Of a stretch of 64,000 bases of DNA, positions 45,557 to 53,389 are shown one piece after another. The DNA lies in assembly GCF_000516515.1 (NCBI RefSeq), contig NZ_KI911784.1, forward strand, positions 1,582,881-1,646,880, in the 5' to 3' direction. Each line of letters starts with the position of its first letter. Position 1 is the first letter of the stretch. The notes beneath the pieces are model-generated. The model had not been told where the DNA came from. It ran no database searches and saw nothing but the letters and a program-made list of their open reading frames with translations. The stretch is from Chloroflexus sp. Y-396-1 (GTDB lineage: Bacteria; Chloroflexota; Chloroflexia; Chloroflexales; Chloroflexaceae). Both the position numbers and the translations under genes were made by a program.

Positions 45557-45660
45557 CGGCGATGGCGATGGCTCACCGATTATGCCTGTCACTAGTTGGG
45601 ATGAGTGCTACCCTCGCCGCAAGCGAGGGTCTGAAGGATACACCGGTTCCACCAATACCA

Positions 45661-46045
45661 GTGCAGCACGCGGGCCGGCGGCCCGCGCTCCCAGGCCCGT
45701 AGGGCGTTGGGCGGTGATATGCACCCCAAAGCGTTCCACCGATACTCGTGCAGCACGCGGGCCGGCGGCCCGCGCTCTCAGGCCCGCAGGGCGTTGGGCG
45801 GTGATATGCACCCCAAAGCGTTCCACCGATACCAGTGCAGCACGCGGGCCAGAGGCCCGCGCTCCCAGACCCGCAGGCCGTTGGGCGGTGATATGCACCC
45901 CAAAGCGTTCCACCGATACCAGTGCAGCACGCGGGCCAGAGGCCTGCGCTCCCAGGCCCGCAGGCCGTTGGGCGGTGATATGCACCCCAAAGCGTTCCAC
46001 CGATACCAGTGCAGCACGCGGGCCGGCGGCCCGCGCTCCCAGGCG
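45661..46045. repeat. Tandem 87-bp array with a GCGGGCCGGCGGCCCGC palindrome
   Basis: The unit GTGCAGCACG recurs at 45661, 45748, 45835, 45922 and 46009, exactly 87 bp apart; the fifth copy is partial. Each unit holds a GC-rich palindrome and GATATGCACCCCAAAGCG. 87 is a multiple of 3, which keeps long frames open on both strands, but there is no other sign of coding. The array sits between moxR and the next small gene. Confidence 0.9.
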
Positions 46046-46058
46046 TGGAGGTAACTCT

Positions 46059-46259
46059 ATGTCGGATCGGGAAAACGAGGTGCTGATAGACCAACGGGCG
46101 AACGCAATCCGAATTGCATTGCAGCGGATCGTCCTGTTGCGCGAAACCGGGCCAAAAAGTGCAGCCTGGCAACGGGCACGAATCAAAACGATGTGGCGAT
46201 TACAACAGCAACTGACGGCGGATACCAAACAGCATCAGGCTAACGATAACGATGAGTAA
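46059..46259 (+). CDS. Small charged protein, 66 aa
   Basis: ATG 46059 follows GGAGG at 7 nt, right after the 87-bp array; the longer frame to 45582 is just array read-through. The product is mostly helical, with Arg and Gln (IALQRIVLLRETG, RIKTMWRLQQQL) and an acidic tail (NDNDE). I do not recognise it. Its stop overlaps the start of the next gene by 8 nt, which suggests the two proteins are made together and may interact. Confidence 0.7.
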   Translation: MSDRENEVLIDQRANAIRIALQRIVLLRETGPKSAAWQRARIKTMWRLQQQLTADTKQHQANDNDE

Positions 46260-48264
46260 CGATCTGGTACACTGGTTAACCAACGCCGGAAGTGTGGCGT
46301 ACAGTTTTGCACTGGCGTTGACCCCTGATGAACGGACAGCCCAGCGTCTGCTGCAACTGTGGGTGCGCACACTCCGCGAACAGCCACCTGCGGTCTGGCG
46401 TGACGACGAGCTGATTACCCGTCTCTACCGGCTCGCATTCAGCAAATACGCCGATCAACCGCGTGAGCGCCGTCCGGCGCCACCAACGGCACCGATCCTG
46501 GGGCCACTACGGACACTGCCACTCGATCAGCGGATGGCAGTGCTGGCGTACAGTTTACTCAGCGCCGATTATGCCCGACTCGCCGCAATGCTGAATACCA
46601 GTCCTGATAATGCACTGGTGACATTCCAACAAGCGATCACGGCATTGGCCCCTGCCCTCGGTCACCATCTCACGCAGCAAATCCAGAGTGATGCGTGCGT
46701 CACCGTTCGGCAGGCGCTGATCAACCCGACACAGCACCTGCAACTGTTCGAGACCGTCCGCCGCCACCTCAGCACCTGTACTCACTGTCGGCTCTTTGAT
46801 CGCGAATGGCAGGCGGTAACTCACGAGCTGACAGCGATCCTCCGCCGAATACGGGACAATCAGCCGTTGCCGACGCGATTGCTGAATCGTTTGCTGAAAA
46901 GTGCTCCTGCGCCACGGCAACGTTTTGTGCAATGGTCATTGCTGATACCGCCACTTGTCCTGATCATCTTAATCCTGACTCTCATCCTACCGGGATTGCT
47001 TCGCAATCCTCTCACCGTGGTGACAACGGGAGCGGCAGAACCCGGTATAACCGCCGGGGAACTGGTCAATCGTGCGCTGGTTCATGGCGGCATCCCCGAA
47101 CCAGAAGGCCCTCCCATCTGGTACGCTCGCTATCAAACGATCTGGTATTTCAACAATCGCACCATCGCCCCGCTCTTCGCCGAAATCTGGCACGACCGCG
47201 ATAATCCGGCCCGTCATCGCTTACAACTGCGCCACATCGAGGGTGGTGCGCCCTACGAGTTTCAGTTGGGCGATGGAACACGCCGTTTCTACTACGCGCT
47301 CGATGGTTCGTATGCACCAACGTTGTACGGCGATCTGCCAATACGTGCAGCGCCGAATGAGCCGGAGTTGGTGGTGAGTCTGATGTCTGCTGAACAACAG
47401 CAGGCTGCCTTCTTTGCTCGACGCCAGACCGGGCCATGGCGGATTGTGCCATTGTATCTGCAACAGGCAGCAGAGGCCCCTGATCTGCGCTTGCTTGGGC
47501 AACAGCGTATCGGAAACCGTCTGGCCTATATTGTCAGTTTCCGCGGCTTCAGCCCTCTTGATTTACCGGCTGAAGCCGCTGAACCGGTTATGGTCTTGAT
47601 GACCATTGCTGGGCAAGACGGCCGTGTTCTGAGTATCACTGAGCTGGTCGGCCCACCCGGCGGCACGCAGACGAGTCGGGTGGTCTGGCGACTGGTAGAG
47701 TTCAACTGGCTGGTTACCGGTGAACAGATTCGCGATGCGTTCACCTTCGAGCGGGCGTGGAATGGTCGGGCCGAAGCTGAAGGATTAGCGCCCCAACCGC
47801 TCATTGATCCGGGCTGGCCGCTGCTACGCAGAATGAACGTGATCGAATTGGAGCAGATTTCTCGTGTATCAGAGCCGTTCGTCCTGCCAGCGACGATCCC
47901 GGTCGGTATTGAGCAGGCAGTGTTGTTACAGTTGCGTGGTTCCACGATGAACGGTGTGCTGTATACGGGGCGCAACAAACGCCTGATCCTGACCTTCGAC
48001 CGGATACCCGATATTGATTCCACAGTACCCACTGAAGTGATCGATCGCTGGCAGGTACGGATCGAACCGGTACGCGGCCAGCGCTATCGGGTAGCGATTG
48101 AACCGATTTCTGCGCGTCGCAGCTCTGGCCCGCGTATTGCCATCGATGCCCAGGGTTTCACCACTGATGAACTTCGAGCAATAATTGCCTCCTTACAGCC
48201 GGTCTATCAGATTGATCTTACCACGCAACAGGCATTTTTCGTCCCGACCGCTACAGTACGTTAG
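46252..48264 (+). CDS. Fusion of ECF-sigma-like region, zinc anti-sigma motif, TM helix and external domain
   Basis: 670 aa. Residues about 1-80 resemble a degenerate sigma region 2 (SVAYSFALALTPDERTAQRL, LITRLYRLAFSKYADQPRER). About 85-140 resemble region 4 (LPLDQRMAVLAYSLLSADYA, RLAAMLNTSPDNALVTFQQA). Then comes HLSTCTHC, an HxxxCxxC zinc anti-sigma motif, at about 175. One TM helix lies at about 225-250 (SLLIPPLVLIILILTLILPG). The external part (about 260-670) has no domain I can name. Sigma and anti-sigma parts in one polypeptide are unusual. The overlapping 66-aa gene upstream may be a partner. Confidence 0.65.
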   Translation: MSNDLVHWLTNAGSVAYSFALALTPDERTAQRLLQLWVRTLREQPPAVWRDDELITRLYRLAFSKYADQPRERRPAPPTAPILGPLRTLPLDQRMAVLAYSLLSADYARLAAMLNTSPDNALVTFQQAITALAPALGHHLTQQIQSDACVTVRQALINPTQHLQLFETVRRHLSTCTHCRLFDREWQAVTHELTAILRRIRDNQPLPTRLLNRLLKSAPAPRQRFVQWSLLIPPLVLIILILTLILPGLLRNPLTVVTTGAAEPGITAGELVNRALVHGGIPEPEGPPIWYARYQTIWYFNNRTIAPLFAEIWHDRDNPARHRLQLRHIEGGAPYEFQLGDGTRRFYYALDGSYAPTLYGDLPIRAAPNEPELVVSLMSAEQQQAAFFARRQTGPWRIVPLYLQQAAEAPDLRLLGQQRIGNRLAYIVSFRGFSPLDLPAEAAEPVMVLMTIAGQDGRVLSITELVGPPGGTQTSRVVWRLVEFNWLVTGEQIRDAFTFERAWNGRAEAEGLAPQPLIDPGWPLLRRMNVIELEQISRVSEPFVLPATIPVGIEQAVLLQLRGSTMNGVLYTGRNKRLILTFDRIPDIDSTVPTEVIDRWQVRIEPVRGQRYRVAIEPISARRSSGPRIAIDAQGFTTDELRAIIASLQPVYQIDLTTQQAFFVPTATVR

Positions 48265-48640: not shown

Positions 48641-49456
48641 ATGCAACTCCGTACCGATTTACAAACTCGTGAAGAACAGGCAGCGTATTTGGCGGAAGCA
48701 CTTGCCGGTCTTTTTGCGGGGCCAGTTCAGCCGTCGCCTATTCGGGGCGGGCGACGGGCAGCGCTTCGTCAGTTGCGTGCGTTTCGTGTTCAGCATTACG
48801 CCCGCACACGTAACGATGTGGTGAATCGTGGAGTTTCCATGCTCTCACCGTATATTCGCCACGGCGTTCTGACGCTGGCCGAAGTGCGCGACTCAATCTT
48901 GAGTCGGTTTGGACACACTCCCGATACGGAAAAGTTTGTCAATGAGCTAGCCTGGCGGGCGTTCTGGCAACTCGTGTATGCTCACCTCGGTGATCGAATT
49001 CATCAGGATATTGAGCCGGCCAAATATCGGACTCGTGTCCCACGTCGTCGTCTCCCATCAGAGGTGATGTCGGCCACGACCGGCCTGGTGTGCATCGACG
49101 AGTCGCTGCGCGAACTGTACACAACCGGTTACATGCACAACCATGCCCGCATGTGGGTGGCCGCGTATCTGCAACACTGGCTAGGTGTAGATTGGCGCGA
49201 GGGCGCCGATCTCTTCTACCGCCATCTGCTCGACGGCGATCCTGCCTCGAATAGCCTGTCGTGGCAATGGGTGGGCAGCACCTTCAGCCACAAACCGTAC
49301 ATTTTCAACCGCCAGAACGTAGAACGCTTCAGCGCCGGAACCTACTGTACGCGCTGCCCACTAGCTCACGATGGTTGCCCATTCGACGACAGTTACGAGA
49401 ACCTGGCCCAACGGCTGTTTGGGGTGTCACTCGCGGAACTGGAGGGACGGCGATGA
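48641..49456 (+). CDS. Cryptochrome/photolyase FAD-binding domain as a separate protein
   Basis: 271 aa, only the helical FAD domain; the usual N-terminal alpha/beta antenna domain is absent. Seen: SMLSPYIRHGVLTLAEV, NELAWRAFWQLVYAHLGD, GYMHNHARMWVAAYLQHWLG and GDPASNSLSWQWVGSTFSHK, which match the FAD-site landmarks of photolyases. The C-terminus has a CxxC and a third Cys (YCTRCPLAHDGCPFD), a possible metal or cluster site. Its stop overlaps the start of the next gene, which encodes an antenna-like domain. The start lacks a strong ribosome-binding site. DNA repair or photoreception is possible. Confidence 0.82.
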   Translation: MQLRTDLQTREEQAAYLAEALAGLFAGPVQPSPIRGGRRAALRQLRAFRVQHYARTRNDVVNRGVSMLSPYIRHGVLTLAEVRDSILSRFGHTPDTEKFVNELAWRAFWQLVYAHLGDRIHQDIEPAKYRTRVPRRRLPSEVMSATTGLVCIDESLRELYTTGYMHNHARMWVAAYLQHWLGVDWREGADLFYRHLLDGDPASNSLSWQWVGSTFSHKPYIFNRQNVERFSAGTYCTRCPLAHDGCPFDDSYENLAQRLFGVSLAELEGRR

Positions 49457-49923
49457 ACGGGGTGATTGTCTGGCTGCACGGTGATAGCCTTAGCCCGACC
49501 GATCCGGCATTGCTGGCAAACCCCGATGCGCCCGCCATATTCGTCTTCGATGAGCCATTTCTGGCGGCGGCTCAGTTGAGCTTTAAGCGGCTCTTTTTCC
49601 TCTACGAATGTGCGCTTGAAGCAATTGCTGATAGGAATGGTAGTATCCGGCGTGGTGTCGTGGTTGATGAAGTGCGAGCATTTGCCGCAGAGCATCAGGC
49701 TTCAACCGTCCACGTAACTGCCAGTGTTGCGCCGCGTTTTCAACAGTATGTAGCTGAACTACAGACCACCGGCCTACAGGTGGTTATTCATCATCCACCG
49801 ACATTCGTCTCGTGGCGTGGCGAACCACCGCGTCGTTTCAGTGCCTTCTGGCGGCGCGTAGCGGAAGAAGCTCTCCGACCGGGGGGTACAGGGCCGGAGC
49901 TGCCGTCAGAAGAGGTGGAGTGA
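49453..49923 (+). CDS. Photolyase-type alpha/beta (antenna) domain as a separate protein
   Basis: 156 aa from ATG 49453, overlapping the previous stop by 4 nt (ATGA). The pattern VIVWLHGDSLSPTDPALL, AIFVFDEPFL, LFFLYECALEAI and HASTVHVTASVAPRF-like segments (AAEHQASTVHVTASVAP) follows the N-terminal domain of photolyases, which binds the light-harvesting cofactor. The usual order in one chain is antenna then FAD domain; here they are two genes in reverse order. Together they could rebuild a photolyase-like complex (inference). Confidence 0.7.
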   Translation: MNGVIVWLHGDSLSPTDPALLANPDAPAIFVFDEPFLAAAQLSFKRLFFLYECALEAIADRNGSIRRGVVVDEVRAFAAEHQASTVHVTASVAPRFQQYVAELQTTGLQVVIHHPPTFVSWRGEPPRRFSAFWRRVAEEALRPGGTGPELPSEEVE

Positions 49924-49926
49924 GCT

Positions 49927-50697
49927 ATGGAATTTCAGGGGAAAGTTGCTATCGTAACCGGCGGCGCCCAAGGTATTGGACGGGCAACTGCGCTGGCATT
50001 AGCGCGTGAGGGGGCCAGTGTAGTGATTGCCGACCGCGACGAGGCGGCCACAGCAGCGTTAGTCGCCGGTATTAATGCCTGGGGTGGTCGGGCGCTAGCA
50101 GTAATCGCTGATGTCAGTGACGAGGCTGATGCCGCCCGGATTGCCAATGAAACGGTATTGGCGTTCGGTGGCATTGATCTGTTAGTGAACAACGCCGGTA
50201 TTCAACAACCGGGCACGATTGAAAGTACGACGTTACAGCTCTGGAACGAGATTATCGCAGTCAATCTCACCGGTGTTTTTCTTGTCTCACGCTTCGTCAT
50301 GCCCGAATTGCGGCGACGGGGTGGCGGCGCGATTGTCAATGTTGCATCAGTCTATGGTTTACGAGCTGAACCAGGTTGGGCAGCCTATTCGGCCTCTAAG
50401 GGTGGGGTGATTGCGCTGACCCGTGCAATGGCAGTTGATGGCGCGACTGATGGGATTAGGGTTAATTGTGTCTGCCCCGGTTTGATAGACACTTCATTGC
50501 TGCGGGCCAACGTAGCACTGATCAATGCCCAACGCCCGGATGAAGCACTGCGCGCCTTTGCCCGCCGTATACCTCTCGGTCGGCTGGGTACGCCAGAGGA
50601 GATTGCTGACATTATTCTCTGTCTGCTCAGTCCGACTGCCGGGTATCTGACCGGCGCCGTCATTACCGCCGACGGTGGATTTGAGGCCCGATTGTAA
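49927..50697 (+). CDS. Short-chain dehydrogenase/reductase
   Basis: 256 aa. Rossmann fold with TGGAQGIGRATALAL, the NNAG motif (LLVNNAGIQQPG) and the Ser-Tyr-Lys catalytic set (NVASVYG, YSASKGG). The C-terminus YLTGAVITADGGFEARL is typical. It resembles 3-oxoacyl-ACP reductase or glucose dehydrogenase-type SDRs; the substrate is not evident. The gene starts 3 nt after the antenna-domain gene, so it is probably in one operon with the photolyase pair. Confidence 0.9.
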   Translation: MEFQGKVAIVTGGAQGIGRATALALAREGASVVIADRDEAATAALVAGINAWGGRALAVIADVSDEADAARIANETVLAFGGIDLLVNNAGIQQPGTIESTTLQLWNEIIAVNLTGVFLVSRFVMPELRRRGGGAIVNVASVYGLRAEPGWAAYSASKGGVIALTRAMAVDGATDGIRVNCVCPGLIDTSLLRANVALINAQRPDEALRAFARRIPLGRLGTPEEIADIILCLLSPTAGYLTGAVITADGGFEARL

Positions 50698-50711
50698 GCA
50701 GGAGATCGTCT

Positions 50712-50975
50712 ATGATCACAGTTACAGTGCGTTTCTTCGCCGGTCACCGCGATATTGTCGGGCGTGCCGAGGCACAATACGCTCTGACTGAGGGAACAAC
50801 GCTGGGTCAGTTATGGGAACAGTTGATAGCCGAATACCCGCGGCTTGCCGGCTACACTGGTAGACTGCTTTTCGCCGTGAATCAGCAGTTTGCGCAACCA
50901 TCAACCGTGTTAGCCAATGGCGATGAAGTCGCCTTCATCCCGCCTGTCAGTGGCGGACGGAGTGATGACGTATGA
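50712..50975 (+). CDS. moaD: MoaD-type molybdopterin synthase small subunit with C-terminal extension
   Basis: 87 aa, beta-grasp fold (MITVTVRFFAGHRDIVG, LFAVNQQFA, VAFIPPVSGG). MoaD must carry a free C-terminal Gly-Gly that is thiocarboxylated to donate sulphur to precursor Z. Here RSDDV follows the Gly-Gly, so a protease would be needed or the protein is inactive in this form. The stop overlaps the moaE start by 4 nt. A GGAG site precedes the ATG. Confidence 0.9.
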   Translation: MITVTVRFFAGHRDIVGRAEAQYALTEGTTLGQLWEQLIAEYPRLAGYTGRLLFAVNQQFAQPSTVLANGDEVAFIPPVSGGRSDDV

Positions 50976-51385
50976 TTGAACCATTTGTAATAACAACTGA
51001 GCCGCTTGATCCGGCGCCATTGGTAGCGGCGGTACAAACACCAGATGATGGCGCTGTAGTAACGTTCAGTGGTGTCGTGCGCAACCAATTCGGTGGCCGT
51101 CCAACAGCATTTCTGGTCTATGAAGCCTATGCCGAGATGGCGGTACCAGTGCTCCGCCAGATTGCCGATGAAGCACGGGCGCGCTGGCCTATCGGGCGTG
51201 TGTGTGTGCATCATCGGGTGGGTCGGTTGGAAATCGGCGAGACAGCAGTCCTGGTAGTCGTTGCCGCGCCGCACCGCGATGCAGCCTTCGCTGCTGCTGC
51301 ATACATTATGGATCGGATCAAAGAAATTGCGCCAATCTGGAAGCAGGAACACTGGGCCGATGGAACCGCCGAGTGGCGTGAGTAA
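50972..51385 (+). CDS. moaE: Molybdopterin synthase catalytic subunit MoaE
   Basis: 137 aa, overlapping moaD (ATGA). It uses thiocarboxylated MoaD to turn cyclic pyranopterin phosphate into molybdopterin. Seen: GAVVTFSGVVRNQFGG, VCVHHRVGRLEIGE, and the catalytic lysine region RIKEIAPIWKQEHW. Confidence 0.95.
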   Translation: MIEPFVITTEPLDPAPLVAAVQTPDDGAVVTFSGVVRNQFGGRPTAFLVYEAYAEMAVPVLRQIADEARARWPIGRVCVHHRVGRLEIGETAVLVVVAAPHRDAAFAAAAYIMDRIKEIAPIWKQEHWADGTAEWRE

Positions 51386-51450
51386 TTGCCGTTTTTCGAC
51401 AAAATACAACTAGCTCAGACGTATCTTCCTCGGAGTTGAACACTTATACT

Positions 51451-52287
51451 ATGCCGGAACTACCTGAAGTCGAGACTGTCGCCCGTTCCCTTGTACCACA
51501 GCTTCAGGGCCGTATCATTGTGAGTTTGGCCAAACTCGACTGGCCGAAAATGATCACGCCGCCTCCTGCCGAATTTACTGCGCTGATCACTGGCCGACGG
51601 ATCGAGACTGTCGGACGGCGAGCGAAGTGGCTTCTTCTCACCCTTGATCGTGGATGGACAATGGCAATCCATCTGCGTATGTCAGGGCACTTGCTGGTTA
51701 CCGAACCGACTGCGGCTCATGAACCGCACGTGCATTTTGCCCTCGAACTTGATAATGGTCGTTGCCTGATCTTCAACGATCAACGCAAATTTGGGCGAGT
51801 TCATCTCCTCGATCAGCAGGGGCTGGCGGCGCTTGATCGATCCCATGGCCCAGAGCCACTGACAGATGATTTCACACCGGACACCCTGGCTCAACAACTG
51901 CAACACCGACGCGCACCGATTAAAACCTTACTCATCGATCAGCACCTGATCGCCGGAATTGGTAACATCTACGCCAATGAAGCCCTTTGGCTTGCCGGTA
52001 TCCATCCGCTGACACCAGGTGCGGCGCTCTCGCCAGAGCAGATCAACCACCTGCATCGCGCCATTCGTGTCGTTCTTCAGGAAGCAATTGCCAACCAGGG
52101 CAGCTCATTACGCAATTATCGCGATAGTTACGGCCAACGCGGCTCGCAACAAGAACATTTTAACGTCTATGACCGGGCAGGTAAACCTTGCCCACGTTGC
52201 CAGACCCTGATCGAGCGGATCGTTGTCGCTCAGCGTAGTACCTACTTTTGCCCGTTATGTCAGCGAGGCATGCAACCGGTAACGTGA
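51451..52287 (+). CDS. mutM: Formamidopyrimidine-DNA glycosylase
   Basis: 278 aa from ATG 51451; the mature protein begins PELPEVETVARSL with the catalytic N-terminal Pro and Glu. It removes 8-oxoguanine and formamidopyrimidines and nicks the DNA. Other residues: Lys in GRRAKWLLL, GIGNIYANEALWLAGIHP and the C-terminal zinc finger CPRC...CPLC. The TTG at 51436 is not the start. Confidence 0.96.
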   Translation: MPELPEVETVARSLVPQLQGRIIVSLAKLDWPKMITPPPAEFTALITGRRIETVGRRAKWLLLTLDRGWTMAIHLRMSGHLLVTEPTAAHEPHVHFALELDNGRCLIFNDQRKFGRVHLLDQQGLAALDRSHGPEPLTDDFTPDTLAQQLQHRRAPIKTLLIDQHLIAGIGNIYANEALWLAGIHPLTPGAALSPEQINHLHRAIRVVLQEAIANQGSSLRNYRDSYGQRGSQQEHFNVYDRAGKPCPRCQTLIERIVVAQRSTYFCPLCQRGMQPVT

Positions 52288-53368: not shown

Positions 53369-53389
53369 TCAATCTTGAAAGAAAACTCC

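What the first reader, a model, noticed from the sequence alone, without database searches (positions are those of the whole stretch)
48641..49923. Photolyase/cryptochrome split into two overlapping genes in swapped order
The FAD-binding domain (271 aa) and the antenna-type alpha/beta domain (156 aa) are separate proteins. In normal photolyases they are one chain with the antenna domain first; here the FAD gene comes first and the two overlap by 4 nt, which implies coordinated synthesis. The FAD half also has a C-terminal cysteine cluster (YCTRCPLAHDGC). A two-subunit light-responsive enzyme in a phototroph would be a new architecture. The operon continues into an SDR and molybdopterin genes.
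Basis: partly seen in the sequence, partly recalled or inferred. Interest (0 to 1): 0.75.

Follow-up and report, generated by a model that had tools for sequence, protein, structure and literature searches.

The report
Two-gene, reversed-order DNA repair photolyase
An enzyme of the light-driven DNA repair family that is usually one protein is here encoded as two separate proteins in swapped order; the same two-gene design was already reported in marine cyanobacteria, and this survey finds that the two genes nearly always occur together in a genome, even when they lie far apart.

Summary
48641-49456 encodes a photolyase FAD domain (271 aa). 49453-49923 encodes a photolyase-type alpha/beta domain (156 aa). 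They overlap by 4 nt, FAD first. It is not a local frameshift: the other seven congeners searched also have the halves as separate genes, and both genes are under purifying selection.

The architecture is not new. A heterodimer was proposed for marine Synechococcus in 2012 (PMC3441193) and the pair described as phr4/phr5, with a fused phr6, in 2022 (PMC9426592), which left open one frameshifted chain or two chains.

My survey favours two chains. In 388 genomes of a cyanobacterial class, 86 of 86 with the FAD half also have the alpha/beta half, against 2 of 302 without it; in 11 the halves lie 88 kb to 4.9 Mb apart. FAD-first fusions also occur, and one is modelled with pTM 0.90.

Four presumed Fe-S cysteines are kept together in 103 of 104 distinct FAD halves. 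Active-site residues are of the CPD type.

Best reading: a two-subunit, inverted photolyase, probably for CPDs. Against it: in E. coli the UV-C protection by Synechococcus phr4/phr5 was not light-dependent. Whether the alpha/beta chain is an antenna is unresolved.

The parts
48641..49456 (+). FAD-binding (catalytic) subunit, 271 aa
   Evidence: PF03441 E 2.4e-26; start MQLRTD shared with congeners; catalytic-type residues conserved
49453..49923 (+). alpha/beta (photolyase N-domain type) subunit, 156 aa
   Evidence: PF00875 E 3.8e-6; AF2 pLDDT 86.3; Foldseek best hits are photolyase chains, 1qnf E 1e-4, PhrB 6dd6 TMq 0.70
49453..49456 (+). 4-nt ATGA overlap of the two genes
   Evidence: sequence; the same overlap in 4 other congeners
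49441..49446 (+). GGAGGG, ribosome-binding-site-like, ending 6 nt before the alpha/beta ATG
   Evidence: sequence
49091..49093 (+). codon of C151, first presumed Fe-S ligand
   Evidence: Cys in 108 of 109 FAD rows (five rows are duplicates), Ile in 10 of 10 canonical rows
49346..49378 (+). C236-x2-C239-x6-C246, remaining presumed Fe-S ligands
   Evidence: each Cys in 108 of 109 FAD rows, in none of 10 canonical rows
49837..49872 (+). C-terminal helix (residues 129-140) of the alpha/beta subunit, candidate docking helix
   Evidence: F129 and W133 invariant in the 21 rows of A3; pLDDT blocks 64 and 63 alone, 91 and 86 for the matching helix in the natural fusion (another species and alignment)
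49927..51385 (+). following genes: SDR (49927-50697), MoaD/ThiS-like (50712-50975), MoaE (50972-51385); neighbours, not part of the enzyme
   Evidence: Pfam; order kept in Chloroflexus loci

Best explanation
The two genes encode the two subunits of an inverted-order photolyase. Shown: the 271-aa chain is a photolyase FAD domain with CPD-type active-site residues and four extra conserved cysteines; the 156-aa chain is a photolyase alpha/beta domain; the two co-occur almost without exception, also when unlinked. Inferred: the chains assemble into a heterodimer resembling a normal photolyase whose two domains are no longer joined in the usual order; the alpha/beta subunit closes over the FAD domain, perhaps through its conserved C-terminal RFSxxW helix; the FAD chain binds FAD and an Fe-S cluster and, when lit, donates an electron to split cyclobutane pyrimidine dimers, perhaps mainly in single-stranded DNA as stated for the related SPL/NewPHL proteins. 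The 4-nt overlap and the internal ribosome-binding site would give coupled synthesis, but are not essential, because unlinked pairs are kept.
For: Domain identity. Co-occurrence: 86 of 86 FAD-half genomes against 2 of 302 others in 388 genomes of the class of a Fischerella genome (E 1e-45 and, chosen afterwards, 1e-20); 43 of 43 against 8 of 115 in 158 genomes of the window's class, hits in decayed copies included; 17 of 17 against 1 of 284 in 301 genomes of its phylum, partly the same genomes. Of 80 named loci, 65 carry the partner downstream or fused, and 15 of 15 other genomes carry one match elsewhere. FAD upstream in all 64 linked pairs. Natural fusion: pLDDT 89.6, pTM 0.90. E102, N167, N204 and W210 in 109 of 109 rows, W105 in 108, M171 in 105. 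Four cysteines together in 108 of 109 rows, 103 of 104 distinct. Inverted SPL/NewPHL proteins repair CPDs in ssDNA (statement in PMC13274461, passage). In Synechococcus 9916 a phr4 insertion lowers survival after UV-C 20 to 30 times (PMC9426592 section 8).
Against: In E. coli the UV-C protection given by Synechococcus phr4/phr5 was not significantly different in white light and dark, unlike phr1-3 (PMC9426592 section 9); a photolyase should need light. No effect of phr4 was seen after UV-B in Synechococcus or in E. coli. No biochemistry exists for the window proteins that I know of. Their two-chain complex was not predicted; only a fused cyanobacterial relative was, without interface coordinates. 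PMC9426592 predicts (6-4) repair from the cysteines and UV-C data, against my CPD reading. The distal Trp of the class I electron chain is missing. Some genomes show the alpha/beta half without a FAD half: G049, G062, G073, G076 and G246, G506 (in G506 the match starts at base 1 of its contig).
Confidence: 0.65

Rival explanations
1. One chain is made by programmed frameshifting between the two genes, as suggested for phr4/phr5, so the split is only apparent.
For: FAD-first fusions exist (9 of 80 loci; two Chloroflexota genomes in one open frame). Spacing is tight in many genomes, and PMC9426592 notes a precisely kept spacer.
Against: In 11 of 388 cyanobacterial genomes the halves lie 88 kb to 4.9 Mb apart on one contig, and in 11 more on other contigs of drafts. 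Gaps of 450, 936 and 1624 nt occur within the window's class. The alpha/beta gene here has its own ATG and GGAGGG.
Confidence: 0.06
2. Same heterodimer, but a (6-4) photolyase like the Fe-S bacterial photolyases.
For: Four conserved cysteines; PMC9426592 predicts this from cysteines and UV-C phenotypes. Foldseek and VIA list PhrB-type chains among the best matches.
Against: N167 and M171 are those of the class I CPD enzymes in the alignment. The only Pfam family found for the FAD half is PF03441. Related SPL/NewPHL proteins are described as CPD enzymes (passages).
Confidence: 0.2
3. A two-chain flavoprotein that protects DNA or senses damage without light-driven repair, cryptochrome-like.
For: UV-C protection by phr4/phr5 in E. 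coli did not depend on light. The window genome already has two other photolyase-family genes in single frames. The distal Trp is missing.
Against: Residues that contact the CPD in class I enzymes (roles recalled) are conserved in nearly all rows. SPL/NewPHL relatives are described as CPD-repairing.
Confidence: 0.15
4. A decaying pseudogene of a canonical photolyase.
For: Some relatives carry broken or shortened copies (G005, G007, G014, G016).
Against: The domain order is reversed; dN is far below dS where dS could be computed; conserved across phyla.
Confidence: 0.02

Closest known systems
Phr4/Phr5 (and fused Phr6) of marine Synechococcus/Cyanobium, PMC9426592; heterodimer proposed in PMC3441193
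   Same: FAD gene first, alpha/beta gene second, adjacent; Fe-S-type cysteines; fused versions exist; Synechococcus and Cyanobium loci fall on the same side of the tree, apart from canonical rows.
   Different: Chloroflexus copies overlap by 4 nt; reported there as separated by seven G-C pairs with a possible +1 frameshift; substrate predicted there as (6-4).
Short photolyase-like (SPL) / NewPHL proteins (Xu 2021; Emmerich 2020, both recalled, not held)
   Same: Inverted order, or FAD domain without N-terminal alpha/beta domain; described as CPD enzymes.
   Different: Two alphaproteobacterial inverted proteins (Ruegeria, Peteryoungia), which I take for this type, lack the C-terminal cysteines and have a tail not detectably related to this alpha/beta domain.
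Class I CPD photolyases
   Same: Both domains; active-site residues.
   Different: Single chain, alpha/beta first, no such cysteines in the 10 rows compared.
Fe-S bacterial (6-4) photolyases (PhrB)
   Same: Four cysteines (PhrB ligands recalled); fold match of both domains.
   Different: Single chain, alpha/beta first; only PF03441 was found here for the FAD half.
Fused FAD-alpha/beta proteins on Deinococcus plasmids (WP_114673394.1, WP_151845379.1)
   Same: Same two domains and cysteines, FAD first.
   Different: One chain of 472 and 456 aa.

Membership tests
Photolyase/cryptochrome superfamily | FAD-binding domain PF03441 | tested here: met
   92.9 bits, cut-off 27
Photolyase/cryptochrome superfamily | alpha/beta domain PF00875 | tested here: met
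   27.4 bits, cut-off 26.6; 7 of 21 members of A3, the window included, reach E 1e-3; fold match
Canonical class I photolyase | one chain, alpha/beta domain first | tested here: not met
Canonical class I photolyase | Trp triad (W306, W359, W382 in E. coli numbering, recalled) | tested here: not met
   W185 in 109 and W208 in 108 of 109 rows; distal Trp not found in an uncertainly aligned stretch
Split inverted photolyase (Phr4/Phr5/Phr6) | FAD gene followed by alpha/beta gene | tested here: met
Split inverted photolyase (Phr4/Phr5/Phr6) | four cysteines for an Fe-S cluster | tested here: met
   present in the window and in 108 of 109 rows; the cluster itself is not testable
Split inverted photolyase (Phr4/Phr5/Phr6) | groups with marine Synechococcus copies apart from canonical enzymes | tested here: met
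   canonical rows on one side of a branch, SH-aLRT 100; the Synechococcus rows were identified by organism and gene order, not by accession; the tool warned of long branches at this join
Split inverted photolyase (Phr4/Phr5/Phr6) | raises survival after UV-C | not testable with these tools
   reported for Synechococcus phr4/phr5, in E. coli without light dependence
SPL / NewPHL | FAD chain without N-terminal alpha/beta domain | tested here: met
SPL / NewPHL | C-terminal Z-domain related to this alpha/beta chain | tested here: inconclusive
   Ruegeria/Peteryoungia tails against A3: E 0.09, probability 0.6%
SPL / NewPHL | repairs CPDs in ssDNA | not testable with these tools
   -
Fe-S bacterial (6-4) photolyase | single chain, alpha/beta domain first | tested here: not met

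The most novel reading that the evidence does not exclude
'Short photolyases', put forward as antenna-less ancestors of the family, are in this large Fe-S-type branch not short at all: they are the catalytic half of an obligate two-chain enzyme whose alpha/beta half is encoded in trans, often far away in the genome, as well as fused in several lineages. The alpha/beta chain would then be needed mainly to complete and close the FAD/DNA site rather than as a light antenna.
Probability: 0.4. Interest if true: 0.55.

Novelty: new member of a known kind. Interest (0 to 1): 0.38.

Why it matters
The design itself is known, so the locus is not a discovery of a new enzyme kind. The useful part is comparative: retention of both halves when they are unlinked is a natural test of the question left open in PMC9426592 (one frameshifted chain or two chains), and it speaks for two. 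It also questions the reading of FAD-only 'short' photolyases as ancestral enzymes. I found no paper saying this in searches, which cover an open-access library only.

Tried and rejected
Local frameshift of a normal photolyase: rejected (order reversed; congeners have separate halves too). Chance ORF pair: rejected (selection). 8-HDF antenna: made unlikely by no CofH match in the own genome at E 1e-3; MTHF, lumazine or flavin antennae were not tested. Sequence search of the alpha/beta profile against PDB sequences gave only a weak cryptochrome match (E 0.0014) and a chance-level one; the single window sequence gave nothing. Phage hits of the FAD half (10 records) are 31-33% identical over 64-71% of the query and were not followed up. 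The VIA-align rows for the fusion nearly all span only residues 1-290, so they do not test the position of the alpha/beta domain. A first tree with the long-branched own paralogue L003 (end branch 9.64) needed 5 changes of the fused and 10 of the unlinked label; I rebuilt without it, with 15 instead of 17 rows labelled unlinked and seven ambiguous rows set aside, and got 3 and 8. Folds not listed are not excluded.

Full report
Observation. Two forward ORFs lie at 48641-49456 (271 aa) and 49453-49923 (156 aa from ATG 49453) and overlap in ATGA. The first is a photolyase FAD domain (PF03441, E 2.4e-26) and the second a photolyase alpha/beta domain (PF00875, E 3.8e-6, just over the cut-off). The FAD half aligns to residues 205-424 of the Anacystis photolyase. 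The alpha/beta model (pLDDT 86.3) finds photolyases as its best PDB matches, 1qnf E 1e-4 and PhrB 6dd6 TMq 0.70.

Not an accident of this genome. All seven other genomes of the genus that were searched match both halves. Of the 30 best alpha/beta loci fetched from the class (51 genomes had a match), 19 had the FAD half on the same contig among the loci at hand, with gaps from -4 to 1624 nt; 2 had it on another contig; for 9 the FAD locus was not among those fetched. dN is 0.08-0.11 for both genes against four congeners; dS is 1.47-1.75 for the FAD gene and, for the alpha/beta gene, 2.9 once and not computable three times. GGAGGG ends 6 nt before the alpha/beta ATG. Over 56 split loci, 17 alpha/beta starts have such a core, against 396 of 3360 background positions; of 80 FAD starts, 11 have one. 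In one congener, G007, the FAD frame is broken in two, and G014, G016 and G005 carry shortened or decayed copies.

Spread. With my profile, 65 of 80 hold the alpha/beta half in the locus: 56 as a separate downstream ORF (gap below 0 in 21, exactly -4 in 14, largest 2562, by my choice of start codons) and 9 fused in the same ORF (one, L118, cut by the contig end), FAD first in every case. The genomes of the other 15 each hold one alpha/beta match elsewhere: 15 of 15. For L104 and L112 the FAD contig ends just behind the gene, so they may be adjacent in reality; for L071 and L089 it ends 1.4-1.5 kb behind.

Co-occurrence. G170 is the genome of the Fischerella locus L110; its class (by inference Cyanobacteriia) was sampled with 388 genomes. 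The FAD half was found in 86 (E 1e-45) and the alpha/beta half in 88 (E 1e-20, chosen after seeing the gap in the scores). Both: 86. FAD only: 0. Alpha/beta only: 2 (G246, G506). Neither: 300. The species are related, so the Fisher value (6e-85) is not a probability of independent events. Of the 86 pairs, 64 are adjacent or fused with FAD upstream, 11 are on one contig 88 kb to 4.9 Mb apart, and 11 are on different contigs. In 158 genomes of the window's class all 43 with a FAD hit also had an alpha/beta hit. Eight had only the latter: G005 (remnant with stops), G049, G062, G073, G076, G080, and G097 and G098, which are weak matches in frames of full photolyase size. A looser look found what may be FAD fragments in G080 and no FAD half in G049, G062, G073 and G076, where any match was to a frame of full photolyase size. 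In 301 Chloroflexota genomes, partly the same ones, 17 had both, G049 only the alpha/beta half, and two (G815, G821) carry both in one open frame.

Two chains, not one. Unlinked pairs cannot give one chain by frameshifting. On the FAD tree of 119 rows the unlinked state needs at least 8 changes and the fused state at least 3; the 10 canonical rows stand apart at SH-aLRT 100, with a warning about long branches at that join. Fusions often mark proteins that work together. The natural fusion L125 of a Synechococcus (453 aa) is modelled with mean pLDDT 89.6 and pTM 0.90. Its C-terminal helix, which carries the conserved RFSxxW motif, has pLDDT 86-91 there, against 63-64 in the isolated window alpha/beta chain.

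Chemistry. In 109 FAD rows (104 distinct) aligned with 10 canonical rows, E102, N167, N204, W185 and W210 are invariant, W105 and W208 are in 108, and M171 in 105, all as in the canonical CPD enzymes. The distal Trp of the class I chain (W314 in Anacystis; function recalled) is not seen, and W172 (109 of 109) is not shared with the canonical rows. C151, C236, C239 and C246 occur together in 108 of 109; L131 has lost all four. Loss as a set fits a shared cluster. These residues point to CPD repair, while PMC9426592 predicts (6-4) repair from the cysteines and from UV-C survival. I keep CPD as more likely but unproved. The own genome has two other photolyase-family genes with both domains in single open frames of 495 and 511 aa, and no CofH match, which speaks against 8-HDF as an antenna.

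The result most against a simple photolyase. In PMC9426592 the phr4 mutant of Synechococcus 9916 survived UV-C 20 to 30 times less well but UV-B normally (section 8). In E. coli lacking phr and lexA, phr4/phr5 raised survival after UV-C, but, unlike phr1-3, without a significant difference between light and dark, and did nothing after UV-B (section 9). Either the enzyme was helped by stray light, or it lacked a cofactor in E. coli, or part of its effect is not photorepair.

Prior art. PMC3441193 (passages) proposed in 2012 that SynWH7803_0266/0267 form a heterodimeric photolyase. PMC9426592 (passages, sections 8 and 9, and part 1 of 2 of the Discussion) described phr4/phr5 and the fused phr6 with reversed order and left frameshift or heterodimer open. 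PMC9649867, PMC9178010, PMC9498864 and PMC13274461 (passages only) mention SPL or NewPHL proteins. Xu 2021 and Emmerich 2020 are not held; what I say of them beyond those passages, such as a C-terminal domain that seals the FAD site, is recalled. The Ruegeria and Peteryoungia inverted proteins lack the C-terminal cysteines, and their tails show no detectable relation to this alpha/beta domain, while two Deinococcus plasmid copies are fused versions of it.

Neighbours. SDR, MoaD-like, MoaE and, as the fourth gene downstream, MutM follow. The run from the upstream AAA ATPase gene to the HD-like gene at 53375 (names are my own reading for these two) is kept in a Chloroflexus MAG (L063), and in another genus of the family (L043) the alpha/beta gene is still followed by moaD, moaE and mutM although the FAD gene is on another contig.

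Verdict. A real, conserved two-gene inverted photolyase-family pair; a new member (Chloroflexus) of a kind already reported in cyanobacteria. The survey adds good evidence that it is made of two chains.

Noticed in passing
45582-46259: Long near-repeats (ORFs on both strands full of CCTGIGGTLWGAYHRPT-like units) between the AAA ATPase gene and the 46252 gene; probably a non-coding tandem repeat.
   Followed up: no
L016 / L039 (G007): FAD gene broken into two overlapping frames while the alpha/beta gene is intact; G007 has the size I recall for C. aurantiacus J-10-fl. Real pseudogene or sequencing error not decided.
   Followed up: partly
L131: An Anaerolineae copy has lost all four presumed Fe-S cysteines at once but keeps the partner gene and most active-site residues.
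   Followed up: partly
L043 1504-3435; window 50712-52287: moaD, moaE and mutM follow the alpha/beta gene in several loci of the family, even where the FAD gene is on another contig.
   Followed up: partly
G225, G238, G249, G261, G323, G418, G425, G426, G456, G462, G468: A second, more distant group of pairs in cyanobacteria (alpha/beta E 5e-25 to 4e-31, FAD 1e-98 to 5e-56) that may be a separate subfamily.
   Followed up: no
L115, L124, L138: Copies labelled Paceibacterota, Tatlockia and Acidimicrobiia sit inside Verrucomicrobia, cyanobacteria and Acidobacteria in the tree: probably misbinned contigs or gene transfer.
   Followed up: no
46252-48264: 670-aa protein with no Pfam match at E 0.01, found upstream of the pair in several Chloroflexus loci.
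   Followed up: no
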